Origin: Candidatus Omnitrophota bacterium
Lineage (GTDB): Bacteria; Omnitrophota; Gorgyraeia; Zapsychrales; Zapsychraceae
Length of the DNA stretch: 64,000 nt
NCBI GenBank assembly: GCA_020429915.1
Contig: JAGQKV010000011.1
Coordinates: 36,744 to 100,743, forward strand
Reading direction: 5' to 3'
The notes under the pieces: generated by a model
Databases searched by the model: none
Told to the model about the DNA's origin: nothing
What the model saw: only the letters and a program-made list of their open reading frames with translations
Shown here: positions 37,363 to 57,517 of the stretch, one piece after another
Position numbering within the stretch: the first letter of the stretch is position 1
Layout: each line of letters starts with the position of its first letter
Position numbers and translations under genes: made by a program

Positions 37363-37369
37363 CACACAC

Positions 37370-38098: not shown

Positions 38099-38150
38099 GC
38101 TGGTGGATTATGCATTATTTCTCCGATAGAATAGCGAAAGGTGGACAAAT

Positions 38151-38588: not shown

Positions 38589-38610
38589 CCTTGCAGTAAA
38601 GGAAGGATCT

Positions 38611-39216: not shown

Positions 39217-39228
39217 GGACATACCTCT

Positions 39229-40026
39229 ATGAACCGTACGTTTTGGACCTCTGCCGTTCTGATCTGTTTTTTGTTTCTCACCGCCTCCCCCAACTCCGCT
39301 CATGCCCAATTTTTCTCGATCGGCACAACAGAAGTGGCTACACCCGAGGATGATGACGACTTTCAACTGGATGAGGACGATTGGGATGCGTATGAACCCG
39401 TTATCGTTATCAAGGACCCTTACGAAGGCTTTAACCGCTGGATGTTCAAGGTTAACGATAAGATCTACCGCTACATTTTCAACCCCATTTCGGACGTATA
39501 CGACTTTATCCTGCCCAACCGCGTTCAGGAGTGCGTCGACGATTTCTTCAAGAATGCCAAGACACCGGTGCCGTTGGTGAACAACCTGCTGCAGGGAAAA
39601 TTCACACAAGCCGCCACGGTAGGCGGCCGCTTCCTGGTCAATTCTACCGTCGGCATAAGCGGCCTGTTCGACCCGGCCGAATACTATCTCAAATGGAGCG
39701 AATATGATGAAGACTTCGGGCAGACGCTGGGTTATTACGGCATGGGCAGCGGCCCGTACCTGATCCTCCCCCTTCTGGGCCCGTCCAGTGGACGGGACGT
39801 CCTGGGCTGGATCGGGGATTACGCCCTCAATCCGTTTCTGTGGCTGGGCATATTTGACGTGGAGAAGGAAGAAGTCTTTACCGGCCTGTCATATTTGCGG
39901 CGGGTCAACGCCTATACCTACCGCCAGCGCGACGATTACGAAACCGTCATGGTGGGCGCGATCGATCCCTACATTGCATTGCAGAACTTTTATGTGCAAA
40001 TCCGCGAGGCCAAATCCAAGGAATAG
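39229..40026 (+). CDS. mlaA: Outer-membrane lipid exchange protein MlaA (VacJ)
   Basis: A 265-aa member of the MlaA/VacJ family. After the signal peptide, DPYEGFNRWMFKVNDKIYRY is the family hallmark, followed by FFKNAKTPVPLVNNLLQGKF, VGGRFLVNSTVGISGLFD and GSGPYLILPLLGPSSGRDV. Most MlaA proteins are lipoproteins; here the signal peptide ends in NSAHA with no lipobox Cys, so it should be a soluble or peripherally bound periplasmic protein. The mlaA gene is inside the operon rather than elsewhere in the genome, and ends it before a terminator. Confidence 0.92.
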   Translation: MNRTFWTSAVLICFLFLTASPNSAHAQFFSIGTTEVATPEDDDDFQLDEDDWDAYEPVIVIKDPYEGFNRWMFKVNDKIYRYIFNPISDVYDFILPNRVQECVDDFFKNAKTPVPLVNNLLQGKFTQAATVGGRFLVNSTVGISGLFDPAEYYLKWSEYDEDFGQTLGYYGMGSGPYLILPLLGPSSGRDVLGWIGDYALNPFLWLGIFDVEKEEVFTGLSYLRRVNAYTYRQRDDYETVMVGAIDPYIALQNFYVQIREAKSKE

Positions 40027-42506: not shown

Positions 42507-45500
42507 TCAGGGAGTCGTTTGGCGGGCAAGCCGGGTAGACCGGTCCGGAACCAGGGCCAACGGCCTTTCGGCGGGTCCGTGTACCGATGGTTGAGCGGGA
42601 TCCGGGACGATCACACCCAACAGCATGGGCAGGGTATGGACCGGTGTAATCTCGATTATGACGGGAACGAACCCTTCGATCCGGATATCCCGGATCGGCT
42701 GCAGGTCCACGGGCAGCGGAATCCCATCGGCATCCCGCAGGATCCGCAGGTCCATGCCGGCCGGGTTCAAATCGATCCCCCCGACCTGTTCCTCGGCCGT
42801 TAAGGCCTCATCTCTTTCACTCAATACGGATTGGTCGATGGTTGCGTGAGAGAGCAGTCGTGTTTCGCCCATGATCGCCCGCTCCCACTTCTCGCCGTTC
42901 CATTTTTCCAGTTCTGAAGCGAACCGACGGACCAGCTGCCCTTCGTGGACCTCGGCATCGCTCACGTGTAAACGGACACGGACCTTATCGCCGACGAAGA
43001 TCGCCTTGAGGAAAGTGAAATTCTGTTCATCCAGATACACGCCGTCCAGCAGACGCCCGCCGCGCGCATAGCCGGTAATCAGGGCGGCCCCCAGCAGGCC
43101 GTGGGCGATCCGTTGTTTGAAGATACCGTATTGATTGGCTATAGCGGGATCCTCTGCCTGGTGCACCGGATTGTAGTCTCCGGACACCCGGCTCATTTCC
43201 TCCAGCAACTCTTCGGTGATCACCATCTCGTGGGACTGCAAGGTCTGGCGGTACTCGATCTCGTCTTTCGCGAACTTCAAATGCGGCCTTTCCGGCAGGT
43301 TATCGTATTGTTCGGGCGCGTCGACCAGCAGACGGGATTCTCCGTCCAGCAACAGCTCACCGTCCACGGCCACGACCATGGTGCGAACCGTGACCTCTGC
43401 CTTCCCTTGAAGTTTCGGATTCTTGACACTTTCTGTAATAACGCCGAGCACGGATATCGGCCCTTTGCCGATGTGGTCCTGCCAGTCGTCGTTGACATAG
43501 CTGATCGTCTGGTTCATATAGATCGACAGCGGCAGCTGAGCGCCGAACGACAACTCTTGCCCGGGATCTCCCAGGAACGCAGACACCTTCGCCGCCAACA
43601 AAATCTTTCCTTCCTCACGGATGACGTCTGCGTTATCCGGTTCGGTTCCGGCAATCGGGGATGCGAGTGCCCGCATGGCCTGCACGTCGTCAGGGGTAAC
43701 CGTGTCCTGAAACAACATCACGTTTCCCGGCGATACAACCTGACTGGGCGGATGCTTTTCGGCCAACTGCATGGTATGCAACCGTCCCTCCGGCGAGAGC
43801 AGGGTGGCCAGGGTGACCTCCAGATCGCTGATGTTACTCCCGGTGCCGACATTCAGGATATGTTTGACGCCTTCCTCACGCAGCTCCGCCGATATCTCTT
43901 CCATAGCCAGGTAAGGCAATACCGCGGCGCCTTCCGCCTTGATCCCGTGCACCCGCTTGTATCCGATCTTCTCCTGGATTTTAGTCGAATCGACCATCAC
44001 CAACCCGTCGGCCAGCCGCCACAGAATCTCAAAGGCCAGCGGTTCCATGGATTTGGTATCGATCCCGTCTTCATCCAGCTTGTCGCGGTATTCGTCGACA
44101 TAATTATGCATCCGACCTTCGTTCAGTGAGTCGAAGGCGTGACGCGTTCGTTCCGTCTGCACCAGGATGACTTTGGCCCGCGGCTCGCGCAGCTTGGCGG
44201 AAATAGCCACCCCGCTCGCCAAACCGCCGGCACCGACCGGCACAAAGATGGCCGACTTGCTCAGGTCATGTCCTTCAGCGATGAACTTATCCACAATCGC
44301 CTCGCCCAACGCCGCGTAGCTGATGATTGCCGATGTATCGGCATGATAGACGTAATATGCCTCGTCGCCCAAGCGCGCGGCTTCGGCCTCGGCGGCCTTG
44401 AACGCGTCATCATAATTCTCGAACAGACTTTCCTCACGCGGGTCTCCGATAATGGTCGCGCCTAACCGCGACATTTCCTCAAGCTTTTCCGGCGGCGTGT
44501 TCTTTCCGACGTAGATAACCGCTTCAAACGGCCGGCCGTAAAACGCGCTCAGCGTCCGCGCGACCCAGGCCACGGCAATCCCCTGGTTGCCGGTAGTCGA
44601 GGTAATGATCTTGCGCAAATCCGGATTCACTTGGGCCTCCTGCAATATCCCGTAGGCGATCCAGGGCTTGAAGGAATTCGTGGGCTGTCTCCCCAACACC
44701 GCCACTTCCACATCGTGACCGTCAAATTCAGGCAAGGGGACCATGTCGATGGCATCAAGATGAAGATTGTTCCGCATGGCGTAACGCGCGTGACGGATCA
44801 TGTCCGTCAACCGGCGGTCGCCGCTGCCGAGCATTTCTCGCACCTCACCTAATTCCGTGGGACGGTCGCGCCACAACATGGGCCGGCCGGATGCGGTCCG
44901 CCGTTCCAAAAAGACATCTTCGGCCGCCATCGCTTCGTCGCGGGTCGGCGCTGTTGATTTGCTGAAGTGATAGATGCCGACCGTGGCCATGGGTTCATTC
45001 GGATAGGTCGCCAAAGTCTTGACGCGGTAACCAGCCTCCTCGGCCATGGCAATAAAGACCGGCCGTTCAACGATGTATTGGTCGGACAACAGATGCGAAA
45101 GATAATAGGGCACGTCAAGCGTCCGGCCGAGATTGCCTGCGACGGCGTCTTCGTCCAAGGTATGCAGTTCAATAATCAGCAGCTCTTCAGCCAGTTCGGC
45201 CCAGCCGGCGAAGTGTTCTTTAAGATTCTGCTCGACGTAGTTGTTGGGAATCAATTCCCCGCGGTAAGCGAACACGGACGTTGAGATCGGTTCACGCTCT
45301 TCGGCCGCTGCCGGGTCGCGGACATCGGCCCACTGACGGTTATGATCGAGCATCGACCGGATATTGAACATAATGTCGGCCCGTATCTTCATCTCCGCGA
45401 ATTTCTGCTGCATGGTGGCCAGAATTTCTTGCGGCTTGCCGATGTCTCCGTCCAGGATAATATGCGGGATACCTTGTGTCTGGAAATTTGCGGCCATATT

Positions 45501-48500
45501 GTCGCGCGCCGCGCGATTGAAATCAATACCCACCAGCACCACCCGGTAAAGATCGGGATACTCACGCATCAATTCTCCGAACGGGGAATTCATCACGACA
45601 TCGTACATGTTCAGGAGAAATCCCCCCTTGCCGGCGCCCACATCGGAAATCATAAACGTAAACGGCTGATCTCCGGCATCCACCCGGCGCTGCATCTCAG
45701 CCGGAGCAGGAATCCGTTCTTCGGCAAACATTCCGCTCATGATGTGGCCGAATTCAGTCTTGACCTTCTTGAAGTAACCCTCATGCGATTTGTCTGATCC
45801 GTCGGTATTGAGAATCCGGTCGACCAGCGTCTCGATCCCGTCCGCGGTGTAACGTTCAATCGACTTGGGATCGCCGAACATCAATTCTTCGGCCAGGGCG
45901 TAGGTCGGGTAATACGATACGGGCACGCCGTAATTGAGCGTCCGGCGGAAGTTGGCTTCTCCCTTTTTGGTAATCCGGACGTCCAATCCGTACACGTCCA
46001 CAAATCCGACATTCTCCAAAATGGAAAAGGCGGCCCGGAACCGTCCCAAGCTGAGCTCGTTGGTCGCGTAGTGGCGCAAATCGATCCATTGATCAGACAC
46101 CAGACTCGGGGCAATGTTCAATTCACGGTCGCGCAACACGGTCAACAGCGGGCCGACAATAAAACCATCCAATTGTTGCCGGATCTCCTCGCGCAACGCC
46201 GGATCAATGTCCTGCGGCAAATCCCAGCCGCCGCGCGACAGAGTCGCTATCTTTCCCAAAATCTTGTTGAACACTTCCACGGTTTCTCGGGGCGATTCAT
46301 CGCGCAAATAACGGGAAAGCTTCAAAGCAATACGGTCGAAGTCGGCTGCCTGCGCATAGGCATCCGCCACCCGCAAGACGGCCTTGCCTTTGTCTGTAAG
46401 CGTAAAGGTCATGGCATCGTTAGCCTGACGGCCTGAACGGGTCAGCCAGCCGAGTTTAGCAAAGGTATAGAGAATACCGTGCAGGTATCCCTTGTTCGCG
46501 TTCTTGCCGCGCGCCTTCAAATGCGCAGCGATCTCGGCCATGGACGGGCTGCGGCGTCCCTCGGCAAACAATCCGAAGATCTCTTCGCGGGCAAACGCGC
46601 GCACGGAAGTGGCGACCACCCCCGCCGTAAATCCCATCAGATTGCCGATGGCGTTGTCCCGCGCGGTCCATTTGATGTACGCGTCGAGCAATCTCTGTTC
46701 GCCGTCCGGATCGAGTAATTTAATGAGCGTAATCTCGGGATGCTGATGCCGGTTAATGGCAATGACCAAGAATTGATTGGTTTGAAAACCGTCGATCAAT
46801 TCCTGGACGTCCATTCCGGCACGAACAAAGCCGGCCTGGATCTTGGCCATCAAATCATGGTAGGCATCAATGTCGGTGGCCTGAAAGTATTCCAGCACAT
46901 TGCGCGTCCATACCGGCAGATTCTGCCAGTCCAACGGATCAAACCCGTCATAGCCGCTACGGATAATCTCGTCGCGACGGTCCGCCTGCTCAGGGGTTAC
47001 GATCAAGGCCTGATCGTCCACACCGGTGAAATCCGGCACATCGTTCTCGCCGACAAGTACCGCGAAGTCGGGCATACGCGCACGCAAACGGTCGAAGACG
47101 GCATGATTCTTGTCGAAAACGATATTCAGCAGAGACCGCGAGAAGTCTTCGGGATGACGGGCGAGAACCGCTTCGAACAGGGTCGGCGGGATCAGCCACA
47201 ACTCAGAGATTTCGTTCAGATTGTAATTGGCTTCGATGGCGGCCAACTCCTCGTCGGTCACCCGGTAGGCGTAAACGGTGACAAACTTACGGATGATCGC
47301 GTCCGGAAGGATTTCCTCACGGAATATCTCATTGAGCCCTGTCACCCGGGTGAGGCGATCCGGATTGAGAGCGATACCCACTTCTTCCCGGGCCTCGCGC
47401 AAAGCGGCCGCCAGTGGCTCTTCATCTTTATCCACGTGGCCGCTGACCGATACCTGCAATTTACCGATCGCTTCTTTCTTGTGATCGGAACGCCGTTGTA
47501 GCAACAATCGGCCGCGCGAATCATAGAGATAGATGTTCACCGCCATATGCGGAATGCCCCGCGCATGCGCGACCGCCTTTTCCTGACTGCCGATAACACG
47601 TCCCTCCCGGTCGGTCACGGTGATCAACTCCCCAGGCAGATTGATATGGCCGGCCTTCCCCCCGGACAGGATTCGGATCTGAGGATCGTTGCGCCACTGG
47701 TCAATGGCCATCACGGCGGCATCGGCGTCGGGTGCAATCTCACGCAGATTGACCACCACATTCTCAAGGCGTCCGCTCAAGGCCTGCGGATCGGTTTCCA
47801 GCAGCGCCGCGATATTGCGGCGGGCGAGCCCGGAAAGTTGCGCATAGTCCGCCGTCGCCTGGAACACACCCATCTGCTCCACTTGCAGTCCCGCCCCGCC
47901 GGAAAAGTACTGACGGACCACCGTGGTCTGCCGGACGGGATCGAAATCTTCCTTGATGTAGTTGTAAACGCCCTTGCGAAAAGCGGCCAGATACTGATCG
48001 TAAATGCGCTGCTTATCTTCCTTATCCGGCACATCAACGCCGCTCACCTTGTTCCGGTCGACATAAACCCGGGCCAACAGGCCTTCCTTCAGGGATTTCT
48101 TGTACCAGGTGGCCAGGATCAGGGCATGATAGATTTGACGCAGTTTGGCAAAATGCGCGCCTTCGTTGACTTCGCGTTCAATCTCCGGGATGACCACTTC
48201 CCTGATCACCTCGGCGGCGATTTCATTTTCAGCAGTTTCGTCACCACCCCCGTTCCGACGCGCCAAATAATCTGCCTCCATCATGACCTTTAGGTGGCTG
48301 TCCGCCACAAAGGCGGATGAACCCTGCTCGAAGACCGTTGCGCGTTCCGGTACGATCCAGACCTTGTTGAAGGTATTCACCGGAATATCCGTGGTGCCGT
48401 ACAAATTTTGCGCCCGACGGTAAACCCGAGACCAAAAACGCTCTCCGAGTTCGTCTTCGGGATACATCAGCGAGGCGGTCAATTGTTTCAGCAGATAATC

Positions 48501-48923
48501 CTGCGCCAGCAGGTCACGAGCCATTTCGGTATAGCTGAACTGCTCCGGAACCATGCGGTCTTTTTCGTACGGCGAAAGATTGACCCACAGGTCCTTTTCC
48601 GGAACGGTCAGCGCGGCGAGAAAATACTTAACCAGGGTCGCATACTCGGACTCGCGATCATCACCGGCCAGCGCTTCTTCGCCGCGGTCCACGATAAAAT
48701 TGAATTTGAGGGGATTTTCGGGATAGACCGTCATTCCCTTGAGGATGGCCGGCTCCGCCGGCGCAGAGACGCCGACCCGGACACCCGGCTGCGGCAGGAC
48801 ATCAAGAATGTCGGCCCCGGCGGATACGGGGACTCCGCTGACCAACAAGGCAGCACTGATAACAAGGCTCAGGAATTTCCGGACAGGAATAAAATTCTTA
48901 CACATCATACGGCATCTTGGCAT
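42507..48923 (-). CDS. Giant exported multidomain protein 1 (2138 aa)
   Basis: A signal peptide (about 1-35) is followed by a conserved head (40-345) with DLWVNLSPYEKDR and PVNTFNKVWIVPE. The cargo then holds in order: a Nudix domain (about 455-600, complete box G495-E501-R509-E514-I517); a winged-helix region (785-850); a methyltransferase-like Rossmann domain with ISDVGAGKGGFLLN (1092-1105); a PLP fold type II domain (1375-1720) with Lys K1419, STTGNQG and VPVGAGG; and a double hot-dog/MaoC dehydratase (1780-2010) with D1916-x4-H1921 and IAHGLLG. The tail (2045-2105) has VGGIDLNP. Head and tail match those of the 53243-57517 protein. Such cytosol-type enzymes behind a signal peptide are unusual. 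No strong ribosome site was seen; ATGs at residues 6-7 are alternative starts. Confidence 0.9.
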   Translation of the reverse strand: MPRCRMMCKNFIPVRKFLSLVISAALLVSGVPVSAGADILDVLPQPGVRVGVSAPAEPAILKGMTVYPENPLKFNFIVDRGEEALAGDDRESEYATLVKYFLAALTVPEKDLWVNLSPYEKDRMVPEQFSYTEMARDLLAQDYLLKQLTASLMYPEDELGERFWSRVYRRAQNLYGTTDIPVNTFNKVWIVPERATVFEQGSSAFVADSHLKVMMEADYLARRNGGGDETAENEIAAEVIREVVIPEIEREVNEGAHFAKLRQIYHALILATWYKKSLKEGLLARVYVDRNKVSGVDVPDKEDKQRIYDQYLAAFRKGVYNYIKEDFDPVRQTTVVRQYFSGGAGLQVEQMGVFQATADYAQLSGLARRNIAALLETDPQALSGRLENVVVNLREIAPDADAAVMAIDQWRNDPQIRILSGGKAGHINLPGELITVTDREGRVIGSQEKAVAHARGIPHMAVNIYLYDSRGRLLLQRRSDHKKEAIGKLQVSVSGHVDKDEEPLAAALREAREEVGIALNPDRLTRVTGLNEIFREEILPDAIIRKFVTVYAYRVTDEELAAIEANYNLNEISELWLIPPTLFEAVLARHPEDFSRSLLNIVFDKNHAVFDRLRARMPDFAVLVGENDVPDFTGVDDQALIVTPEQADRRDEIIRSGYDGFDPLDWQNLPVWTRNVLEYFQATDIDAYHDLMAKIQAGFVRAGMDVQELIDGFQTNQFLVIAINRHQHPEITLIKLLDPDGEQRLLDAYIKWTARDNAIGNLMGFTAGVVATSVRAFAREEIFGLFAEGRRSPSMAEIAAHLKARGKNANKGYLHGILYTFAKLGWLTRSGRQANDAMTFTLTDKGKAVLRVADAYAQAADFDRIALKLSRYLRDESPRETVEVFNKILGKIATLSRGGWDLPQDIDPALREEIRQQLDGFIVGPLLTVLRDRELNIAPSLVSDQWIDLRHYATNELSLGRFRAAFSILENVGFVDVYGLDVRITKKGEANFRRTLNYGVPVSYYPTYALAEELMFGDPKSIERYTADGIETLVDRILNTDGSDKSHEGYFKKVKTEFGHIMSGMFAEERIPAPAEMQRRVDAGDQPFTFMISDVGAGKGGFLLNMYDVVMNSPFGELMREYPDLYRVVLVGIDFNRAARDNMAANFQTQGIPHIILDGDIGKPQEILATMQQKFAEMKIRADIMFNIRSMLDHNRQWADVRDPAAAEEREPISTSVFAYRGELIPNNYVEQNLKEHFAGWAELAEELLIIELHTLDEDAVAGNLGRTLDVPYYLSHLLSDQYIVERPVFIAMAEEAGYRVKTLATYPNEPMATVGIYHFSKSTAPTRDEAMAAEDVFLERRTASGRPMLWRDRPTELGEVREMLGSGDRRLTDMIRHARYAMRNNLHLDAIDMVPLPEFDGHDVEVAVLGRQPTNSFKPWIAYGILQEAQVNPDLRKIITSTTGNQGIAVAWVARTLSAFYGRPFEAVIYVGKNTPPEKLEEMSRLGATIIGDPREESLFENYDDAFKAAEAEAARLGDEAYYVYHADTSAIISYAALGEAIVDKFIAEGHDLSKSAIFVPVGAGGLASGVAISAKLREPRAKVILVQTERTRHAFDSLNEGRMHNYVDEYRDKLDEDGIDTKSMEPLAFEILWRLADGLVMVDSTKIQEKIGYKRVHGIKAEGAAVLPYLAMEEISAELREEGVKHILNVGTGSNISDLEVTLATLLSPEGRLHTMQLAEKHPPSQVVSPGNVMLFQDTVTPDDVQAMRALASPIAGTEPDNADVIREEGKILLAAKVSAFLGDPGQELSFGAQLPLSIYMNQTISYVNDDWQDHIGKGPISVLGVITESVKNPKLQGKAEVTVRTMVVAVDGELLLDGESRLLVDAPEQYDNLPERPHLKFAKDEIEYRQTLQSHEMVITEELLEEMSRVSGDYNPVHQAEDPAIANQYGIFKQRIAHGLLGAALITGYARGGRLLDGVYLDEQNFTFLKAIFVGDKVRVRLHVSDAEVHEGQLVRRFASELEKWNGEKWERAIMGETRLLSHATIDQSVLSERDEALTAEEQVGGIDLNPAGMDLRILRDADGIPLPVDLQPIRDIRIEGFVPVIIEITPVHTLPMLLGVIVPDPAQPSVHGPAERPLALVPDRSTRLARQTTP

Positions 48924-49066
48924 AGATTAGAGCACTTCCGCCCGGCGGGACATAGCTCGGTACGGGATTGATAAGCGGATTAACCAAAAGTTGACAAGCG
49001 GAAATGAAAATACCGAAACCGGAAAGGGCTTCGTCGATGGGGAATCGTGACTTGATTATGTTTATA

Positions 49067-49095
49067 AGTATAGTATTAATAAGGTGGCAAGTCAA
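49067..49095 (-). promoter_or_regulatory. Sigma-70 promoter of giant gene 1
   Basis: On the minus strand TTGACT (49095-49090) and TATACT (49072-49067) are 17 bases apart. The start should fall near 49060, giving a leader of about 137 bases before the predicted ATG. The strong boxes suggest good expression. Confidence 0.75.
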
Positions 49096-49098
49096 TGG

Positions 49099-49120
49099 CG
49101 ACCCTCTGCGGGGAGGGTCG
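49099..49120. repeat. Inverted repeat between giant gene 1 and the radical SAM gene
   Basis: CGACCCTC (49099-49106) and GAGGGTCG (49113-49120) pair perfectly around a 6-base loop. It lies 84 bases after the radical SAM stop and directly upstream of the giant-gene promoter, so it may end the PHP-GT/radical SAM transcript, but no U-tract follows. Confidence 0.45.
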
Positions 49121-49204
49121 GATACCGAAAGCAACACAAATCATTGGTATAAATAAATTTATGCTTGAGGAGCAAAGGGGGTTGCGAAGTTTGGCCTGCG
49201 CAGT

Positions 49205-50503
49205 CTAGTTGAGGATGGATGGCCGTTCGCGCAGGAAGTTTTGCAGTTTGCCGTAGTCCGGCGCCTTGCGACCGCTGAAAAGCTCGCAGGCCTGGTAGTA
49301 AGCCAGATCACAGCGCCACAAATCGAAAAACAACGGCTCTTTCTTGAGCTTGCGAAACAATGAAATGGGCGTGCGGATGCCTTCCAGAAAGGGACCGAAC
49401 AAGAACGACGGATCGCGGAAGCATTCCCAATCACATTTGTTGCAGGTATCATTACGATCCACGGTACTCATATCGAGCTGATCGTAGTCGCCCAGGTTTT
49501 CGTCACCGCGGAACCCGCAGGGGTACGTCTTTCCGTCTTTCGAGTCGACGAAAAAGAAATCCACACCGCCGCGGCAACCGTAACCCAGGTCCTTTCCCTC
49601 CTGATACTGCTTCTTAAGGGCATACAACGAGGCCAACGGGGTGAAGATGCGTAATTCGGAACGGTACTGCGGGACCACCTGCAGCAGGGCGTTGAACAAC
49701 TGAACACGTTCCTGCCGCGAAAAGTTAACCACCTTGTCTATCGAGGTGGCCGTGTAAACGGAGGCCAGCTCGTCGTTACCGGTTCCTACGCTCATCGGAT
49801 AACACATATTGACCGTGGTGAAACCCATGTCTTTGACGAACCGGTAGAACCGGTCGAAGCCGGCACAGAATTCGTCGTGAAATCTTTCCAGATACTGATC
49901 ATCCTGTTGGCCCGGTTCCTGAAAAATGGCCATGGTGCGCGGCCCGCCGAGATTCCTGTTGATACCCAGATTGGCCGACGGATACAGCCCCGCCTCATGA
50001 AACATCGGCACGACCTTCTCAATACCCTTGATCAACCCATCGAACCCGCGCATCTCCTCGTGGGTCTTCGGGTCGGCCGAATCAATGCTGATCCAGAAAT
50101 TGCGGAGTTTGGTTTTGGCAAGGGCATCGACCACCCGGCGCACACGCGACTGAAACTCGTCCTCGCTCTTGCCGTAGCGCAGCATGTAGCCGTTGGTTCC
50201 CGTGCGGATGTATTCGATGCCGGCCTTGGCCGCGTGGTCAATCAACTCGACCAGCTGTTTAAAAAACAACATCGGCTCGCCGCCCGTGAACGATATCGCC
50301 TCCACTCCGTTCTCGGCCGCCTTGTCGATATAACGCTTGATCTTGTCGACTTCGAGGATGGACCGCTGAAAGTCGGCGGTCTTGCGCATGCCGCACTGCG
50401 GGCACAACGCGTTGCAGTGATCGGTCATCTGGATGATCAGTTGACCGGGAATTTTGTTCTGAATAATTTTGAAATAACGCGTCAGGTCACTTTGTGCTAA
50501 CAT
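49205..50503 (-). CDS. Radical SAM protein with SPASM-like C-terminal cysteines
   Basis: A 432-aa enzyme that binds a [4Fe-4S] cluster through C30-x3-C34-x2-C37 (CNALCPQCG) and cleaves SAM to start radical chemistry. The SAM-binding GGEP motif is in ISFTGGEPMLFF. The C-terminal part holds further cysteines: DLGYGCRGGVDFFF, KTYPCGFRGDENLGDY and NDTCNKCDWECFRDP, a SPASM-like auxiliary cluster region found in enzymes that modify peptides or sugars. The start is the ATG with GGGAG six bases upstream, inside the end of the PHP-GT gene, so the two are coupled. The substrate is unknown. Confidence 0.88.
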   Translation of the reverse strand: MLAQSDLTRYFKIIQNKIPGQLIIQMTDHCNALCPQCGMRKTADFQRSILEVDKIKRYIDKAAENGVEAISFTGGEPMLFFKQLVELIDHAAKAGIEYIRTGTNGYMLRYGKSEDEFQSRVRRVVDALAKTKLRNFWISIDSADPKTHEEMRGFDGLIKGIEKVVPMFHEAGLYPSANLGINRNLGGPRTMAIFQEPGQQDDQYLERFHDEFCAGFDRFYRFVKDMGFTTVNMCYPMSVGTGNDELASVYTATSIDKVVNFSRQERVQLFNALLQVVPQYRSELRIFTPLASLYALKKQYQEGKDLGYGCRGGVDFFFVDSKDGKTYPCGFRGDENLGDYDQLDMSTVDRNDTCNKCDWECFRDPSFLFGPFLEGIRTPISLFRKLKKEPLFFDLWRCDLAYYQACELFSGRKAPDYGKLQNFLRERPSILN

Positions 50504-52961
50504 CTTCTTCTCCCATTTCATCCAGGACATTCAGCACAATGCGGCGCGGCTCATTCGCCACGATCATGTCCTGTTCCCTACCTGTCAGTATATTGAACCC
50601 AAGCAGGTTTTCCAGTGATTTTTCCATGGAGAAGATTTGTTTGACGCGTTCGGAAGCCTTATTGCGCATACTGACATAACTGTCGGGGGTATATTCACTA
50701 ACCTTGATTAAAGACAGGATCTTGTCCACCCACAGGCGGGGATGATCGACCGGCAGTACGAAGCCGGTTTCCTGATCGACGATAATCTCCTGCGGTCCTC
50801 CGACGTCGGTTACCAAGGCGAGCAATCCGCAGCTCTGCGCCTCCAGCACGACCATCCCGAAGGTATCGGTCGTACTCGGAAACAGCAACAGGTCGGAGCT
50901 GCTGTAGAGCTTGGCCAGTTCGGAGCTTTCCACCTGTCCGGTAAAAACAACACGCTCGTCGCCGGCGAAGTCTTCGCGCAATTGCGGCAGGGCCGGCCCG
51001 TTCCCGGCGATGATGAGGTTGACATCCCCACGCGTTTGAACGACTTCTCGATAAACCTTGGCCAAGAAATCGAGATTTTTGTCCTTGCTGATGCGCCCGG
51101 CATAAATCAGATTGAACCCTTCGGGAATGGCGTATTTGCGCAGCGTCGTTTGTTTTTCGGAAAGGTCAAAGCGGAACAAATCGGTATCGATACCGCGTTT
51201 GAAAACCGACATCTTGTCCTCCCGCATATTTTTGCGCGACAGGATATCGATATACTCCTTCGTCGGAACCTGCAGCTCATCGACCTGGTTGAAAAACCAA
51301 TTGGTGTAGCGTTCGATCATACGCGGGGAGTAGCCGTCACCCATGATGTAATCGAATTGCGCGCCGAAATCCGAATGATAGATCCCTTTGCACTTGATCC
51401 CCAGCAAACGGGCCGCCAGCAATCCGATCATCCCGACCGGACCGGGAGTGGATATGATAATTTCCTGAGGGTTTTCGCGTTCAATGATCTCGACGGATCG
51501 CAGGAACGACGGAAAGTGCATGGTGTAGGTATTGTATATTTCGGGAGTGAAGGAAAAGTGCGTCGGAAGATTGATGACGTTCTGATGCTCGCACGGCTCG
51601 TTGTCGAGATTCTTGTGCGAAGTGACCACGTGCAGCGGGATGTCGTGTTCCCGGGCAGCACGCAGCATATTGTTAATCGTCTTGGACACGCCGTTGAGAT
51701 CGACGAAGGTATCGGTAAACCAGAAGACCTTCCCCTTCTCGTCGCGTTTGGTCCGGGCATACGCATTCTTAAAACGTTCCAACAGTTTTCGGTCCTTGTT
51801 GAGATGCATCCAGGTGGAGGAAAACGGCAGCGTCATGTAGGCCATCGGAACCAGGGAGGTCAGGTTGTTGATCGCCTTGAAGACATTCCCTCTGTCCATA
51901 TCCTTGCGGAATCGCTTGATGAAATATTTGAGATATTCGTCTCCCAGCCGACAAATATTGTCGTAGACCGCATTAATCCGGTCTTCCAGCTTGATATTCT
52001 GATGCAGAATCTGCGTTTCCAGCCGGTCGATAAAACGGGCCAGGATACGCTCCCGCTTTTTGCTGCTGACCTTCATCCGGTGAATGATATAGGCATCCTT
52101 GAGCTTGGGTGCTTCGTCACGAAAAACGATGTCGGTGATGATCTTCAGCACACGGTTCTGATTCTTGTTATTGGAATGGAGCAGAAAGTCGTTGTAGATC
52201 TTGTAGAACACATACGCCATCGTCTTGTAATTGTTGCTCCGGCCCATGGCCAGACTGTGTTTGTTCTTGATGGCCGCGATAAATTCAGCCTTCGTACTGG
52301 CCTCGCACTCCGTCCAGGTGTCGGCGGAAAACAGGCCGGCATGGTCGTCGGACCCTCCTGTGAATCCCTTGACCCAGGGATCCCGGCTGATCGGTTCGAT
52401 CTTGTGCTTCTGGTACATGCGGTCGATATCTTCCGGCGTTAAATTGCGCAAACCGTCCATCCACACTTCATTGAAGTAGGGATTGCGGGCGCCGTTGATG
52501 CCTTCGAAAACATCGAACATCAGGATCAATTTTTCAAAGACATCCATATTGAGCCGTCCGTTCACCGCGTAGGTAGCATGGGCGACCGAGTAACCGATGT
52601 CGTTTTCAATGATGTACTCTCTCAAAGTGTAGATATTGTGACGAATCTTTTCGATATGCCGGTATTGTTCGGCGGTGATATCGAACAGCAGGACGTGCAT
52701 CTTGCATCCGTCTTCGGGAAAGCCGGTGGTCACTTCGACGCCGATAATCGTGTCTTCGGGATATTTTTGATTCAGACGGACGGCCCCGTCCACCGTATTG
52801 TGGTCGGTAATGATGACATAATCCATTCCCTTGCCCTTGGCCCGCGCATAAACCTCTTCTACCTCTATATAGCACTCATTCATTCCGATTTGACGCAACG
52901 CCCATTCCGAAGGATCGTTGGAATAATTGGAATGGACATGCATGTCCGCTTTTTTCATCAT
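50487..52961 (-). CDS. PHP phosphoesterase fused to family 4 glycosyltransferase
   Basis: An 824-aa bifunctional protein. Residues 1-250 are a PHP domain with H8-x-H10 (MHVHSNYS), DYVIITDHNTVDG and the strand GVEVTTG, matching metal-dependent phosphoesterases of the YciV/trpH type. A linker with many basic residues (250-400) follows. Residues 400-800 are a GT-B fold glycosyltransferase: IYAGRISKDKNLDFLAK, then LIIAGNGPALPQL and SSSDLLLFPSTTDTFGMVVL with the E-x7-E type donor motif (FGMVVLEAQSCG). PHP linked to GT4 is rarely seen. It may remove a phosphate and add a sugar on one lipid or sugar carrier. The two adjacent ATGs follow AGGAGACGT. Confidence 0.85.
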   Translation of the reverse strand: MMKKADMHVHSNYSNDPSEWALRQIGMNECYIEVEEVYARAKGKGMDYVIITDHNTVDGAVRLNQKYPEDTIIGVEVTTGFPEDGCKMHVLLFDITAEQYRHIEKIRHNIYTLREYIIENDIGYSVAHATYAVNGRLNMDVFEKLILMFDVFEGINGARNPYFNEVWMDGLRNLTPEDIDRMYQKHKIEPISRDPWVKGFTGGSDDHAGLFSADTWTECEASTKAEFIAAIKNKHSLAMGRSNNYKTMAYVFYKIYNDFLLHSNNKNQNRVLKIITDIVFRDEAPKLKDAYIIHRMKVSSKKRERILARFIDRLETQILHQNIKLEDRINAVYDNICRLGDEYLKYFIKRFRKDMDRGNVFKAINNLTSLVPMAYMTLPFSSTWMHLNKDRKLLERFKNAYARTKRDEKGKVFWFTDTFVDLNGVSKTINNMLRAAREHDIPLHVVTSHKNLDNEPCEHQNVINLPTHFSFTPEIYNTYTMHFPSFLRSVEIIERENPQEIIISTPGPVGMIGLLAARLLGIKCKGIYHSDFGAQFDYIMGDGYSPRMIERYTNWFFNQVDELQVPTKEYIDILSRKNMREDKMSVFKRGIDTDLFRFDLSEKQTTLRKYAIPEGFNLIYAGRISKDKNLDFLAKVYREVVQTRGDVNLIIAGNGPALPQLREDFAGDERVVFTGQVESSELAKLYSSSDLLLFPSTTDTFGMVVLEAQSCGLLALVTDVGGPQEIIVDQETGFVLPVDHPRLWVDKILSLIKVSEYTPDSYVSMRNKASERVKQIFSMEKSLENLLGFNILTGREQDMIVANEPRRIVLNVLDEMGEEDVSTK

Positions 52962-53200
52962 ACGTCTCCTGTTCGCCGTAATAATGTTCCGTTTTCAGTT
53001 CACGTCACTATAGAGTATGGCCTGATATTGTTACGGAAATGTGTCTTTTTGGTTACTATGCGGTAAATGATTGGCATCAAATATTTTATACTACTGCAAA
53101 AATTCACATTTGTAAATGCATTACTGACAGCGTCTTGCAGGATTCGACCCGTTTGGGGGCCAAATTTCACTTGACTTGAAAGTTAATATGGCAAGATTCT

Positions 53201-53219
53201 TTGCCTAGTTTCTAGGCAA
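53201..53219. repeat. Hairpin TTGCCTAG-N3-CTAGGCAA after giant gene 2
   Basis: The arms at 53201-53208 and 53212-53219 are perfect complements with a 3-base loop. It lies 24 bases downstream of the stop of giant gene 2 and could be its terminator, although a U-tract is lacking on either strand. Confidence 0.5.
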
Positions 53220-53242
53220 CAGCAATGGAGACGCTTGCAAGG

Positions 53243-56200
53243 CTAAAGGGATTGGTCGGCAGCGCGTAGCTGTCCAGGTGAAACGGCGGACAACTGGATT
53301 TGGCTGTCAGCGGGACCTTCCGGATTGTCCAGGTCATTGATCCCTAACAGCAGCGGGAGATTGGTGACCGGAACAATCTGGAAAATAACCGGGGTGAAGC
53401 CCTCAATCTGTATATTTTCCAGATCCTGCATGTCGACCGGAGTTTCCAGTTCGATGCCGCGGCCTTCCGACTGTATTTCCAGCAAGGAGGGATTAAGATC
53501 GATACCCCCGACATTCTGCTCCGCCACCTCATTCGCCGGCGTGTCCCGGTCCGTGACCAGAACGGCCCGGTCCGAACCGCCTTCGGGAGATTCACGGTCC
53601 GACCCGGCATACGCTGCCCATAAATCAAGCAGGTAAAACGGACTCGCTTCCAACTGTCCGCGATCGATCTCTACAAAATCCTGTCGCGGCGTAACGGGAA
53701 TGGCCATGACCTGAGTCCGGTTATTGTCGAACCAGGCATCCTGCCGGCCGCGCACCGTATAGTTGTCGGTGTCGCGGAGGATGATATCGATGTCGGTGTT
53801 GTCCTGCAGATCGCTGAGGTCCTGCGCCTGAAACCGACGGATGATCCCTCCACGGATAAATAGCCGCGGCGCATCCTCCTTTCGCGGAGCCGCCTGGTAC
53901 AGTACATCCAACTCCGCCACAACAGCCTGCAAATTACGATTCAATGAGTACAGGTTATCAAGTTTACCGAAGGCTTCTATGGCCTCAATCACTTTCGCGC
54001 CGTAACGCTCCACCCATTGCGTCCGCAAGTCGGAACTGACCGTGTATGTGCGCGGATTTTGCGGCATACGCCGTCCGTCATCACTCAAAACCGCCCGGTC
54101 TTTTCCGTCCGCGACGGAGCGACGCTCCTCCGTCGGCAAGCCGAATGCCGCCACCAGATCCTCACGTTCCTGCGCCCAAAAATCCGCCACCGGACGGTTG
54201 TATCGCGGAACGACGGTATCGGCCGCGACATCCGCCAACTGGTCCACGCGCTGAATAAATCGCTCCTGGAAGACCGCCGGCAGCTCCTCCAAATAGGCCC
54301 GGTTGCGCAAGGTGCTGACCACCTGCGCGACAAAATAAGGATATGTCCCTTCTTCCGAAACGAACGGCAGCTCATTGGCCAGCCCGCGGATTACCGCCTC
54401 ATTAACCGATGCCGAAGTCAACCAGAAGTTGCCGGACAAATCAGCCATTTCCAGACGGTTGGCCAACTCAAAGACCTTGGACCGGCGTTCCGCCGGAATA
54501 TTGCGCAGGGCCCCCAGGAACCCGACGTCAATGGCTTGCCGGCGGCGGAGGAAGGTCAGGGCCGTATTCCTGACCTCGTCCCGATTGTCCGCACCGTAAA
54601 CAAAGTTATTGTAATCTTCGTCGACGCGTTGAAAGGCAATGTCCCAACGTTCCGCGATCCGGTCGAGAAGCTGGGTGTATGTTTGCTCGCCGGCAAGCCA
54701 ACTCCGGATATTGGCGTCCAGACTGTATCGCTGCAATCCGGCCAGCTCCTGATAGGTAATTTCCGGTGTTGCCACGTCCGATGCAAAATCGGTCCGCCGG
54801 ATCGCGGCCGTGACGTCCGCGAAGAAATCGGCCAACGATGTTTCCTCCCCGAGAAAGCCCCGCAAGGCCCGGCGAAAGCCCTCCTTGTCCGTCTCGCCTA
54901 CCCGTTCGCTGTAATCGGCATTCTCGACCTCGGGCCGGGTGTAGGTGGTAACGCCCATGAGATCTCCGATCTGCTCCATCGTCTCCGGAACATACGCGGC
55001 GGTGACCCACCGCCGGCCGTTGGCGTCTTGTGGACCGAGCACCTGGCGTAACTGAAAGTCATGCAAGAGGGCCGACGCGAAAACGACTTTGAAATCCCGG
55101 GCGTTTTCGATCTGACCGGCACTCATATTCCAAATCAGACTGCCCATTGTGACCAGCATATTGTGAAAATGGTTGTGGTAATTGTCGACCGTGAGATTAA
55201 TCTCAGCTCCCTGTTCGTCGGTGGCACGGAGACCCGCGTACTGCCCGCGCACTCGTTCAAGAAGATCCATGGCGAAAGGCAGGCTGCGCTCGATCTCCGC
55301 TGCCTGCTCCGCGGGAAGAGTCCGCGCGAATCCGCGAATAACGTTTTCAATGTCGGCCGGGAGATTCCGGTACATCTCCTCCACCGTTTGGTAAGAGCGA
55401 GCGGATTGCGTAACCGCGTCCAGGTCCTGAGTGCGCGCCAGGACGGCCTTTTGGCGGCCGATCGTCAGCACACCCGGCCGGACGACGGCATTCTCGCCGA
55501 ACAGGGCCTCCGACAGCAGAAAAGACAGAAACGCGGCCCGGCGGGTGGGACGAATGTTGTAACCCTCGGCAAAGGGACTGCGCTCGGTCCCCCACGCCTG
55601 CGGCGGAAACCGCGGCGTCCACCGGGTATTGAAGTAGGCCTCCGAGTTCATGGAGGCCTCGAAAAACTCCTGGTCCATTTCCAACTGGTGAATTACCGGA
55701 TAACTTTCCAATCCCTCGGGGGTTTCACCATAAGAACCCGGTTCCTCGATGGAATGGATCACCAGCCGTTGCGAAAAATCCTCCACCCCTTCCCGTTCGG
55801 CCCACTGCTCCAGCAGCCCGACAAATCGGGCAAATGTCCGTCCTCCGCCGAGAAAATCACTGACCACAATCGGCGCGGTGGATCCGCGGACATCGGCTCC
55901 GATAGTATCGTTAAGATAATCCATGTACCGTCCGGCCTGATCCTCGGAGATCGGATTGTCGCTCAGCAGCGAGAAGGCCAGATAACGGACACGGTCAAAT
56001 TCGGGATTGGCCAGCTGCAAACTGCGATAGATCCACTCGGGACTCGATCCCAGTGAGATGAACAAGGCCTCCTCGCCGACCCGGTCCACGACATTAGTCT
56101 TGGTCATCGCGGCCTGTTCGAGCGTGGCCCGCACAAAATCACCAACCGCGTAGCGTTGTTCCCCCCGTCCGACGACCTGAACGCTGCCGATGCGCCGCTC

Positions 56201-57517
56201 GGCCTGAGTCCGGATTTGCTGGCGCTGGGCGGCGGTGAGCTGTTGGTAATTCTCAATAGTCGGTTCGTTGTAGAACTGGGTTACCAGGATAGCCGCGTCG
56301 CGCCGCGACTCCGGACTGGTCAATTCCAGTCCCGTCGGAGCAATACGCAATCGGTCTTCGGTTTGCGCCATGACCGCCCGGTCGGCGGGCGACAACGTGC
56401 GGGTGACCTCAAAGGTCTCGTTGGACAACGCCAGCGACGTCCCGCCCGAGAAGTACTTGCGGGGGATGACTTCCTGGGTGACGGGATCGAACTCCTCTTT
56501 AATGTAGCTGTAAGCCCCTTCCCGGAACGCCTCCAGATACTGCTGGTATATTTTATTCTTGATATTCTTGTCGTCGACATCCACGCCGGACAGCTTCTTT
56601 TGATCCACATATTTGCGGCCCAGGAAACTCTGACGGAGATTACGTTTGAACCAGGTAGCCAGTATCATGGAGTGATAAATCTGTCGCAGCGGACGAAAGT
56701 GCTCGCCTTCATTGACCTCCCGCTCAATCTCGGGGATCATGACCTCCCTGATAATTTCCGTCACCTCCGGTGACTGCTCCTCGCTGCCCGCCGCCTGACC
56801 GGTCTGCAGACGGAACGCGGCGTTGGGTTTGCGGCTCGCCTCGGTGGCCAAATAATCCTCCTCGAGCATAACCTTCAGCCGGCTGCGCACCACATAGGCG
56901 GTATCCCCGTTTTCGTAAACCACCGCCTTTTCCGGGACAATCCACACTTTGTTGAAGGTATTGACCGGTATATCTGTGGTGCCGAACAGGCGCTGGGCCT
57001 TGGTATAAACGCGCTCCCAAAATTTCTTGCCGACATCGTCCTCCGGATACATGAGTGATGCCGTGATCTGTTTGAGAATATAATCCTGTGCGAGCATATC
57101 CCGGCCCATCTCGGTAATGCCGAAGCTGGCGGGCACGATGCGGTCGTTTTCATAGGGCGAGAGATTGACCCACATTTCGTCCTCGGGGACGGTTAACGCC
57201 GCCAGAAAATATTTGATCAACCGCCTCGTTTCCTGCGTCAGCTCATCACCGGCGAGTCCGCTCTGACCGACATCGATAATAAAGTCAAAACGCAACGGGT
57301 TGTCGGCAAAGACCCGCATCCCCCGAATAAGAGCCGGTTCATAGTGGTCACTGAGGTGAACCATGGTTCCCGGTTGAGGCAGGGCCTCCAGCAGCGGAGA
57401 ACTCGCATAACCGACGGCGGGCAGAACCGGCGTCAGGATCAGCGCGCACACCAATCCTGCGACCAATTGCCGGCACAGAAAGTGTTGACGGATTTTGTAG
57501 AGATGAGAAATCAGCAT
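53243..57517 (-). CDS. Giant exported multidomain protein 2 (1424 aa)
   Basis: A signal peptide (about 1-38) leads into a head (43-358) homologous to that of giant protein 1, with EMWVNLSPYENDR and PVNTFNKVWIVPE. The cargo differs: a PRTase-like segment (about 480-665, IVVSDFLGGGRTFARFVG); an HD domain (775-915) with YHN 780-782, HD 819-820 and TD 909-910, resembling class I cyclic-nucleotide phosphodiesterases; a helical region; and a polymerase-beta-type nucleotidyltransferase motif (IRGGIIRRF, then D1242-x-D1244). The tail (1335-1393) carries VGGIDLNP and LPLLLG. Complete metal-site residues suggest active enzymes. No strong Shine-Dalgarno site precedes the ATG. It lies at the far end of the same strand block as giant gene 1. 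Confidence 0.9.
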   Translation of the reverse strand: MLISHLYKIRQHFLCRQLVAGLVCALILTPVLPAVGYASSPLLEALPQPGTMVHLSDHYEPALIRGMRVFADNPLRFDFIIDVGQSGLAGDELTQETRRLIKYFLAALTVPEDEMWVNLSPYENDRIVPASFGITEMGRDMLAQDYILKQITASLMYPEDDVGKKFWERVYTKAQRLFGTTDIPVNTFNKVWIVPEKAVVYENGDTAYVVRSRLKVMLEEDYLATEASRKPNAAFRLQTGQAAGSEEQSPEVTEIIREVMIPEIEREVNEGEHFRPLRQIYHSMILATWFKRNLRQSFLGRKYVDQKKLSGVDVDDKNIKNKIYQQYLEAFREGAYSYIKEEFDPVTQEVIPRKYFSGGTSLALSNETFEVTRTLSPADRAVMAQTEDRLRIAPTGLELTSPESRRDAAILVTQFYNEPTIENYQQLTAAQRQQIRTQAERRIGSVQVVGRGEQRYAVGDFVRATLEQAAMTKTNVVDRVGEEALFISLGSSPEWIYRSLQLANPEFDRVRYLAFSLLSDNPISEDQAGRYMDYLNDTIGADVRGSTAPIVVSDFLGGGRTFARFVGLLEQWAEREGVEDFSQRLVIHSIEEPGSYGETPEGLESYPVIHQLEMDQEFFEASMNSEAYFNTRWTPRFPPQAWGTERSPFAEGYNIRPTRRAAFLSFLLSEALFGENAVVRPGVLTIGRQKAVLARTQDLDAVTQSARSYQTVEEMYRNLPADIENVIRGFARTLPAEQAAEIERSLPFAMDLLERVRGQYAGLRATDEQGAEINLTVDNYHNHFHNMLVTMGSLIWNMSAGQIENARDFKVVFASALLHDFQLRQVLGPQDANGRRWVTAAYVPETMEQIGDLMGVTTYTRPEVENADYSERVGETDKEGFRRALRGFLGEETSLADFFADVTAAIRRTDFASDVATPEITYQELAGLQRYSLDANIRSWLAGEQTYTQLLDRIAERWDIAFQRVDEDYNNFVYGADNRDEVRNTALTFLRRRQAIDVGFLGALRNIPAERRSKVFELANRLEMADLSGNFWLTSASVNEAVIRGLANELPFVSEEGTYPYFVAQVVSTLRNRAYLEELPAVFQERFIQRVDQLADVAADTVVPRYNRPVADFWAQEREDLVAAFGLPTEERRSVADGKDRAVLSDDGRRMPQNPRTYTVSSDLRTQWVERYGAKVIEAIEAFGKLDNLYSLNRNLQAVVAELDVLYQAAPRKEDAPRLFIRGGIIRRFQAQDLSDLQDNTDIDIILRDTDNYTVRGRQDAWFDNNRTQVMAIPVTPRQDFVEIDRGQLEASPFYLLDLWAAYAGSDRESPEGGSDRAVLVTDRDTPANEVAEQNVGGIDLNPSLLEIQSEGRGIELETPVDMQDLENIQIEGFTPVIFQIVPVTNLPLLLGINDLDNPEGPADSQIQLSAVSPGQLRAADQSL

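What the first reader, a model, noticed from the sequence alone, without database searches (positions are those of the whole stretch)
42507..57517. Two giant exported proteins share head and tail modules around unrelated enzyme cargo
Both proteins start with a signal peptide and a homologous head of about 310 residues (shared strings: WVNLSPYE, AQDY-x-LKQ-x-TASLMYPED, PVNTFNKVWIVPE, PEIEREVNEG) and end with a homologous tail (VGGIDLNP, then I-x-I-E-G-F-x-PVI and LP-x-LLG). The cargo between them is different and consists of complete enzyme domains. This is a swap-in architecture, like polymorphic toxins, but with metabolic-type enzymes. From memory, similar head and tail strings are common in Omnitrophota; I know of no described function.
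Basis: partly seen in the sequence, partly recalled or inferred. Interest (0 to 1): 0.92.

Follow-up and report, generated by a model that had tools for sequence, protein, structure and literature searches.

The report
Exported carrier family with enzyme cargo
An uncultured Omnitrophota bacterium encodes about 35 very large, apparently exported proteins, all with the same front and back pieces but with different, almost cysteine-free cargo in between, including enzymes of central sugar metabolism that normally stay inside cells.

Summary
The window's two giants (2138 and 1424 aa) belong to a family with 35 head-bearing ORFs in this one genome (73,594 aa, about 6.6% of it); all 35 have one N-terminal head and a C-terminal GGIDLNP-type tail. 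Head matches occur in 53 of 56 close genomes searched (own included) and 56 of 193 drawn from the phylum; 72 of 80 named records are titled Omnitrophota/Omnitrophica. The head models confidently (pLDDT 86) and matched no family or fold searched. Cargo mostly differs within the genus, and modules recombine. Several cargoes are central-metabolism enzymes: malate synthase + class I aldolase + isocitrate lyase (no second copy found), GTP-PEPCK, PEP-synthase-like, and branching enzyme + starch-synthase domains + GH77. New signature: 30 of 35 cargoes have no cysteine, against 0 of 49 control ORFs of 400 aa or more; survivors include the isocitrate-lyase and PEP-synthase active-site cysteines. Best reading: a Sec-exported carrier whose head and tail probably form one domain with cargo inserted at a Gly-Gly loop, putting working enzymes outside the cytoplasm. 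The destination (host, prey, vacuole, own periplasm) is unproven. Polymorphic-toxin membership is not supported.

The parts
42507..48923 (-). Giant protein 1 (2138 aa), whole ORF
48813..48923 (-). Signal peptide of protein 1 (residues 1-37, AxA-type site judged by eye; both cysteines of the protein are here)
   Evidence: family-wide crude test
47895..48812 (-). Head module of protein 1 (residues 38-343, ending YFSGG)
   Evidence: structure
47187..47630 (-). Nudix hydrolase domain (residues 432-579) with intact Nudix box
44979..46619 (-). AprA_N (weak) / WH_AprA / AprA MT2-like methyltransferase block (residues 769-1315)
43872..44696 (-). PALP-fold PLP enzyme, threonine-dehydratase-like (residues 1410-1684)
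42942..43241 (-). MaoC-like hydratase (residues 1895-1994), GDxNPxH motif intact
42609..42785 (-). Tail module of protein 1 (residues 2047-2105, VGGIDLNP...LPMLLGVI)
53243..57517 (-). Giant protein 2 (1424 aa), whole ORF
57404..57517 (-). Signal peptide of protein 2 (residues 1-38, site judged by eye; both cysteines of the protein are here)
56441..57403 (-). Head module of protein 2 (residues 39-359, ending YFSGG)
53513..56440 (-). Cargo of protein 2 (residues 360-1335), no known family; three separate stretches match large ORFs of four other genomes
53342..53512 (-). Tail module of protein 2 (residues 1336-1392)

Best explanation
A lineage-specific exported carrier family. A Sec-type signal peptide takes the protein across the inner membrane. 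Head and tail are probably two halves of one domain; cargo, mostly about 250-4600 aa, sits as an insertion between the head's closing Y-F-S-G-G and the tail's opening G-G-I-D-L. The carrier handles export, surface docking or delivery, and the cargo supplies working enzymes and binding domains. Cargo is recruited from cytosolic and already-exported genes, purged of cysteine except where catalysis or pairing needs it, often grouped by pathway, and recombined between carriers. Likely role: a secreted enzyme set acting outside the bacterium's own cytoplasm, most plausibly on metabolites of a host, a prey cell or a vacuole. Shown: architecture, family, cysteine depletion, retained catalytic residues in several enzymes, no second copy for three enzymes, recombination. 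Inferred: export, activity, one-domain head and tail, origin of the cargo, destination.
For: 35 of 35 own-genome members have one N-terminal head and a tail. Crude signal-peptide rule: 33 of 35, strict AxA 31 of 35; the strict rule passes 36 of 229 control ORFs (giants were scored on the stretch before the head, controls on their first 80 residues). Cargo cysteine 10/57,283 against 1.49% in 125 cytosol-like ORFs and 0.58% in 29 SP-like soluble ORFs; 30 of 35 cargoes have none, against 0 of 49 controls of 400 aa or more and 24 of 229 of all controls. Surviving Cys include ICL KKCGH in three genomes and the Cys aligned with GICGQ of PEP synthase 2ols. Standalone GlgA of the same genome has 8 Cys and standalone GH77 2 after its first Met; the giant's copies have none. 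Branching enzyme aligns over 620 residues with catalytic motifs kept (motifs recalled). MS/class I aldolase/ICL have no second copy found in the 94%-complete genome; MS occurs in 5 of 56 genomes, each time in a large ORF with a head. Y[FM]SGG and GGID persist in most divergent homologues, and L247 (426 aa) has them fused with no cargo. The tail reaches pLDDT 92 while the cargo is mostly disordered.
Against: PEPCK, UDP-sugar pyrophosphorylase and PEP synthase need nucleotides not expected in a periplasm. PEPCK shows active-site departures (P-loop Cys to Gly, and a metal-ligand His to Gln by my reading). 9 of 35 cargoes have no Pfam hit at the thresholds used (10 at 1e-3), and several hits are weak or below the Pfam cut-off. 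Cysteine purge is weaker in the named-record sample (70/45,631; 18 of 49 cargoes Cys-free). Model of head+tail has mean pLDDT 64 and pTM 0.58; no PAE or coordinates were available, so docking is not shown. No secretion machine was identified or searched for. No proteomic evidence. Some head ORFs lack a recognisable tail (10 of 146).
Confidence: 0.55

Rival explanations
1. Effector or toxin family: cargo domains are weapons delivered into prey or competitors (polymorphic-toxin-like or predatory effectors), and metabolic domains sabotage the target.
For: High copy number and fast cargo turnover within a genus; methyltransferase, kinase-like, peptidase, HEAT and WD40 domains in cargo; related giant Omnitrophota proteins were read as predatory weapons (PMC12419801 and PMC10066038, passages seen).
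Against: No toxin family among the Pfam hits of the 35 cargoes; glyoxylate-shunt and glycogen enzymes kept with catalytic residues, and the glycogen giant kept colinear between congeners at 54% identity over 3592 columns; cargo is not C-terminal.
Confidence: 0.2
2. Repurposed, mostly non-catalytic domains used as adhesins, binding scaffolds or surface coat; enzyme folds are only convenient folds.
For: Many cargoes are too divergent for Pfam (9 of 35 with no hit); PEPCK active site altered; HEAT/WD40 cargoes; giant Omnitrophota proteins have been proposed as adhesins or coats (PMC10066038).
Against: Catalytic Cys of ICL and PEP synthase kept where nearly every other Cys is lost; intact branching enzyme, Nudix box and MaoC motif, aldolase active-site segments; MS and ICL share one giant in three genomes although the own-genome head is not sister to the other two.
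Confidence: 0.15
3. Membrane-anchored cytoplasmic metabolons: the N-terminal helix is a membrane anchor and cargo stays inside as channelled pathway assemblies.
For: Pathway grouping; nucleotide-dependent enzymes; no second copy found of MS, class I aldolase and ICL.
Against: Cysteine purge and AxA-type sites are those of exported proteins; basic residues before the hydrophobic stretch put the body outside; signal-peptide-like remnants (twin-arginine, lipobox) occur inside some cargoes.
Confidence: 0.08

Closest known systems
Chlamydia trachomatis secreted glycogen enzymes (PMC4829429, PMC9251005; abstracts and outlines seen)
   Same: Housekeeping glycogen-metabolism enzymes and a phosphoglucomutase sent outside the cell into a metabolically active vacuole; Chlamydiota and Omnitrophota are both placed in the PVC superphylum (PMC12057145, passage); overlapping enzyme classes here (glycogen synthase, branching enzyme, GH77, PGM-like; that GlgB and MalQ are among the secreted chlamydial enzymes is recalled).
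   Different: There: separate proteins through type III secretion. Here: giant polyproteins with Sec-type signals, a shared head and tail, cysteine purge, and glyoxylate/gluconeogenesis enzymes too.
Polymorphic toxins / CDI systems (PMC3482391 and PMC6336857, search listing only)
   Same: Conserved export parts, exchangeable payload; here also many copies per genome.
   Different: Payload is internal, large and often metabolic; no toxin domain among the Pfam hits of the 35 cargoes; immunity genes not looked for.
Giant ORFs of Omnitrophota and lipocone-bearing gigantic proteins (PMC10066038, PMC12057145, PMC12419801, passages and one section seen)
   Same: Same phylum, large modular proteins; PMC12419801 lists polysaccharide-biosynthesis enzymes, histidine-kinase relays and methylases in them.
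   Different: The text I saw mentions no shared head/tail family, cysteine depletion or glyoxylate/gluconeogenesis/glycogen cargo on a common carrier. The giant ORFs counted in PMC10066038 are longer than 20 kb and mostly have transmembrane helices; here the largest of 35 is 5139 aa and 26 of 35 cargoes have no TM-like segment. Some may still be the same proteins.
AprA (polyketide synthase-related) methyltransferase module
   Same: Protein 1 cargo aligns with AprA winged-helix and methyltransferase parts.
   Different: No other PKS part was hit by Pfam in protein 1; the module sits in a carrier with a signal peptide.

Membership tests
Head-cargo-tail carrier family (defined here) | One N-terminal head ending Y-F-S-G-G type plus C-terminal GGID tail around cargo | tested here: met
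   35 of 35 own members; of 146 complete head ORFs over all loci, 120 have the tail by HMM and 14 more a separate GGID-type motif; 2 have it fused to the head without cargo; 10 have none recognised (my re-reading of its rows)
Head-cargo-tail carrier family (defined here) | Sec-type signal peptide | tested here: met
   33 of 35 by a crude rule; SignalP not available
Polymorphic toxin systems | Conserved N-terminal trafficking part with variable C-terminal toxin domain | tested here: not met
   Payload is followed by a conserved tail in 35 of 35; no toxin family among the Pfam hits
Polymorphic toxin systems | Adjacent immunity gene | not tested
   Neighbours of the giants were not screened for immunity families
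Chlamydia-type secreted metabolic enzymes | Type III secretion signal and machine | not tested
   No T3SS search was made; giants carry Sec-type signals
Chlamydia-type secreted metabolic enzymes | Catalytically competent glycogen enzymes exported | tested here: inconclusive
   Branching enzyme intact by alignment, GH77 DHFRG motif kept; activity and location not testable here
Known Pfam/NCBIfam/PADLOC/PHROGs families | Head or tail matches a described family | tested here: not met
   Protein 2, which holds both head and tail, has 0 matches in all four libraries
Known protein folds | Head fold matches a solved or viral predicted structure | tested here: not met
   Best PDB E 0.15, query-normalised TM at most 0.15 in the 50 listed rows; BFVD best E 0.07. 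The second aligner was not available and AlphaFold DB of cellular proteins was not searched
Intracellular parasites with ATP/ADP translocase | TLC family gene in the genome | tested here: inconclusive
   0 of 56, but no control genome rang

The most novel reading that the evidence does not exclude
Omnitrophota run an extracytoplasmic central metabolism: glyoxylate shunt, gluconeogenic steps and glycogen synthesis on cysteine-free giant proteins that share one docking domain, used to turn host or prey metabolites into storage sugar in a compartment outside the bacterial cytoplasm.
Probability: 0.3. Interest if true: 0.95.

Novelty: categorically new. Interest (0 to 1): 0.86.

Why it matters
Exported proteins that carry whole central-metabolism enzymes would break the rule that such enzymes work only in a nucleotide-rich cytoplasm. 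The near-removal of cysteine with catalytic ones kept is a sequence-level record of enzymes adapted to life outside the cell, which makes location and activity directly testable. The family takes about 6.6% of this genome and occurs in most sampled close relatives, yet has no match in the family libraries searched, so it hides a sizeable share of the biology of a phylum described as having no isolate (PMC10066038 abstract). A natural carrier that tolerates inserts of 250-4600 aa at one place would also be a useful protein-engineering scaffold.

Tried and rejected
Rejected: chance or alignment artefact (E 4e-122 and a 35-member family). Rejected as membership: polymorphic toxins (tail after cargo, no toxin family hit). 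Rejected as known fold: Foldseek against PDB and BFVD gave nothing for the head, nor PDB for the head+tail model.

Idea that GGID motifs mark cleavage sites between cargo modules: internal GG[IVL][DN] motifs in cargo are 3 against 2.0 expected from shuffles in the own genome, 5 against 1.4 in G002 and 2 against 0.4 in G043, and two of these ten hits are at the head end; L236 has extra GGIDL motifs. Not supported in the own genome, left open.

The first head+tail alignment A1 misplaced the tail fragments and was dropped; A3 with whole short members was used instead. TLC translocase search inconclusive because no control rang. Literature searches in which a described head/tail family could have shown up: (titles and abstract starts), with passages read and section 12 of PMC10066038; nothing I saw describes it. 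bioRxiv is not held, and a preprint on giant genes in predatory bacteria that I recall was not read.

Caveats. ORFs in scripts run stop to stop, so true starts may lie downstream and the count of 59 Cys before the heads may include untranslated residues. Control ORFs are the longest non-overlapping ORFs of at least 150 aa and include some false ones. In one search four of the 18 motif-only ORFs (L120, L185, L188, L231) were scored on the head's own Gly-Gly; I count L120 and L231 as cargo-less and L185 and L188 as without a recognised tail. Pfam thresholds differed: 0.1 for protein 1, 0.05 for the ten cargoes, 0.001 for the rest. Catalytic motifs other than those aligned are recalled.
Full report
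WHAT IS THERE. The two ORFs are real: 42507-48923 (-), 2138 aa, and 53243-57517 (-), 1424 aa. They align at 50% identity over 432 columns at the N-terminus (E 4e-122) and at 38% over 139 columns at the C-terminus (E 5e-15); the other printed matches have E 1.3 or worse. Protein 1 carries a Nudix domain, an AprA-type winged-helix/methyltransferase block, a PALP enzyme and a MaoC hydratase; its Nudix box and MaoC GDxNPxH motif are intact. Protein 2 has no Pfam or NCBIfam match. Its cargo matched 5 of 56 genomes, own included: in the 4 others three separate stretches, each inside an ORF of 2174-8779 aa. The ORFs of G001 (2174 aa) and G041 (2601 aa) agree in contig and open-frame length with head matches; for the other two no head row was seen in the capped list.

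FAMILY. The own genome (3.35 Mb, 33 contigs, 94% complete) has 35 head matches in ORFs of 865-5139 aa. I fetched all of them (the window). All 35 have one N-terminal head, and all 35 have the tail: 34 by phmmer with the window tail and the last by a family HMM. Their open frames total 73,594 aa, about 221 kb or 6.6% of the genome. Among 56 genomes (own, genus, family, order) 53 have a head match; the misses are G017, G034 and G036. In an even draw from the phylum 56 of 193 have it, generally with fewer and more divergent copies outside the order. Of 54 complete head ORFs in those loci 49 have the tail, and 2 of the other 5 have a tail in the next ORF. Over all loci, 146 complete unique head ORFs: 120 with tail by HMM, 14 with a separate GGID-type motif only, 2 cargo-less with the motif fused to the head, 10 without a recognised tail (re-read as told under Tried and rejected). 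Median cargo of the 138 scored is about 1009 aa.

JUNCTIONS. Heads end in Y-F-S-G-G or close variants and tails begin with G-G-I-D-L or close variants: the strict patterns fit 52 and 56 of 60 members of the own and sister genome, and the printed exceptions are one-letter variants, contig-edge ORFs or boundary misses of the rule. Of 14 divergent ORFs from other families of the class the head-end motif was found in 11 and a GGID-type motif in 12; the two G084 ORFs have neither. In the 426-aa L247 the two are fused as YFSGGVDL with no cargo. The simplest reading is one ancestral domain with cargo inserted at a Gly-Gly loop. The head alone models at pLDDT 86 and pTM 0.85 and matches no solved or viral structure: best E 0.15 in PDB and 0.07 in BFVD. 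The head+tail model also has no PDB match.

CARGO. Pfam hits in the 35 cargoes include: malate synthase + class I aldolase + isocitrate lyase in one 3031-aa protein (L060); next to it on contig C1 UDP-sugar pyrophosphorylase + phosphoglucomutase-like (L051, 1796 aa) and GTP-PEPCK (L051, 1389 aa), with a weak, below-cut-off FBPase match (L031) further along (positions); CBM48/branching enzyme + starch-synthase domains + GH77 in one 4075-aa protein (L040); PEP-synthase/PPDK-like (L053); glutamate-dehydrogenase-like (L050); methyltransferases, HTH, histidine-kinase-type ATPase, receiver, HEAT and WD40 domains. 9 of 35 had no hit at the thresholds used (L058, L038, L039, L059, L034, L057, protein 2, one of two L033 members, L042); the other L033 member has only a hit at 0.012. 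The malate synthase / aldolase / isocitrate lyase segment has no other match in the genome beyond itself and two short matches of its first 77 residues to neighbouring giants; class II aldolase was not tested. Malate synthase occurs in 5 of 56 genomes, each time in an ORF of 982-4340 aa; four of these ORFs carry the head by HMM and the fifth (G001) agrees in contig and open-frame length with a head match. For glycogen the genome also has standalone GH77 and GlgA. Cargo of 8 divergent homologues includes a phosphoglycerate mutase, methyltransferases, a receiver, a metallophosphatase and FHA; 3 of 8 had no hit.

ARE THE ENZYMES INTACT. Branching enzyme aligns end to end with solved GlgB (642 bits, query residues 26-645), with RVDAV, AEEST and HDE segments in place (assignment as catalytic is recalled). 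Isocitrate lyase keeps KKCGH in three genomes; aldolase keeps its lysine and acid segments (recalled); the PEP-synthase-like protein keeps GGATSHAA and CGQ, though spread over long insertions. Against: PEPCK departs at the P-loop cysteine and, by my reading of the alignment, at a metal-binding histidine.

CYSTEINE. The cargo of the 35 giants has 10 Cys in 57,283 residues (0.02%); heads hold 2, tails 1, and the stretches before the heads 59. 125 cytosol-like control ORFs have 1.49%; 29 SP-like soluble controls have 0.58%, a group with some doubtful members. 30 of 35 cargoes have no Cys, against 24 of 229 controls of any length and 0 of 49 controls of 400 aa or more. At 0.58%, ten or fewer has log10 p of about -126 under independence. 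Of the ten, two are in GCKKCGH (isocitrate lyase), two in KCGLCGQ (PEP synthase), four in signal-peptide-like segments inside cargo, and two in an unexplained CC. The same genome's standalone GlgA has 8 Cys and the standalone GH77 2 after its first Met, so the GH77 contrast is small. G002 cargo has 0.02% and G043 0.04%; the named-record set is looser at 70/45,631, with 18 of 49 cargoes Cys-free. Together with the crude signal-peptide test (33 of 35; strict AxA 31 of 35; strict rule 36 of 229 in controls) this is the strongest evidence for export. The window also encodes MlaE, an ABC ATPase, MlaD, MlaC and MlaA, consistent with a cell that has an outer membrane.

SWAPPING. Of 35 own-genome cargoes 13 have any cargo match (E below 1e-8) in the 25 members taken from congener G002 (3 of them cut by contig ends), and 22 have none. 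One pair is full-length (L040, glycogen) and two share about 1900-2100 columns (L053, L050). Of 14 cargo-sharing pairs 5 have sister heads, one of them with support 0.59; support at the joining nodes of the other 9 runs from 0.2 to 1.0 or is missing. One G002 member (L099) shares different stretches with three own-genome giants (L034, L050, L046). Malate synthase and isocitrate lyase share one giant in three genomes, although the own-genome head is not sister to the other two. So both vertical descent and module exchange occur, and these pathway partners travel together.

MECHANISM. Shown: architecture, family extent, cysteine depletion, retained catalytic residues in several enzymes, no second copy for three enzymes, recombination. 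Inferred: Sec export, enzymatic activity, one-domain head and tail, and the destination. Enzymes that need ATP, GTP, UTP, CoA or SAM make sense outside the cytoplasm only where another cell supplies these, so a host, a prey cell or a vacuole is the likeliest place. Chlamydia gives a precedent: its glycogen enzymes and a phosphoglucomutase are secreted, the former shown in the vacuole lumen (PMC4829429, PMC9251005; abstracts and outlines seen). Earlier work on giant Omnitrophota proteins proposes adhesion, coat or predation roles (PMC10066038 passages and section 12; PMC12057145 passages; PMC12419801 passages). The last mentions enzymes in such proteins, but the text I saw has no head/tail family, cysteine depletion or glyoxylate/gluconeogenesis cargo.

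VERDICT. Observation confirmed; interpretation partly supported. A new carrier family by the libraries and papers searched; function and destination remain to be shown.

Noticed in passing
L052 ORF residue 1379, L034 ORF residue 363, L037 ORF around residues 445-464, L050 ORF around residue 2551: Signal-peptide-like remnants (twin-arginine-like and lipobox-like segments) buried inside cargo, as if whole exported-protein genes had been fused in, signal included.
   Followed up: partly
window 49205-52961: Between the two giants, same strand: a PHP + GT4 glycosyltransferase fusion (824 aa) and a radical SAM protein (441 aa), overlapping ends.
   Followed up: no
window 36568-40026: MlaE, ABC ATPase, MlaD, MlaC and MlaA in a row: outer-membrane lipid transport set.
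   Followed up: partly
G004:C51 and G024:C83 (L252, L253): ORFs of 8721 and 8779 aa that share single stretches with the cargo of protein 2; whether they carry the head was not checked.
   Followed up: no
L236: A distant homologue with three GGIDL motifs, two of them internal and followed by similar stretches (GVxExIGPVSSPA), possibly joints between cargo units.
   Followed up: partly
L039 ORF residues 1329-1330: An isolated CC pair in an otherwise cysteine-free 2200-aa cargo, unexplained.
   Followed up: no
G043 (L120, L121, L124 to L128, L130): A 2.2 Mb genome with 61 head matches, many in smaller members of about 630-1500 aa.
   Followed up: partly
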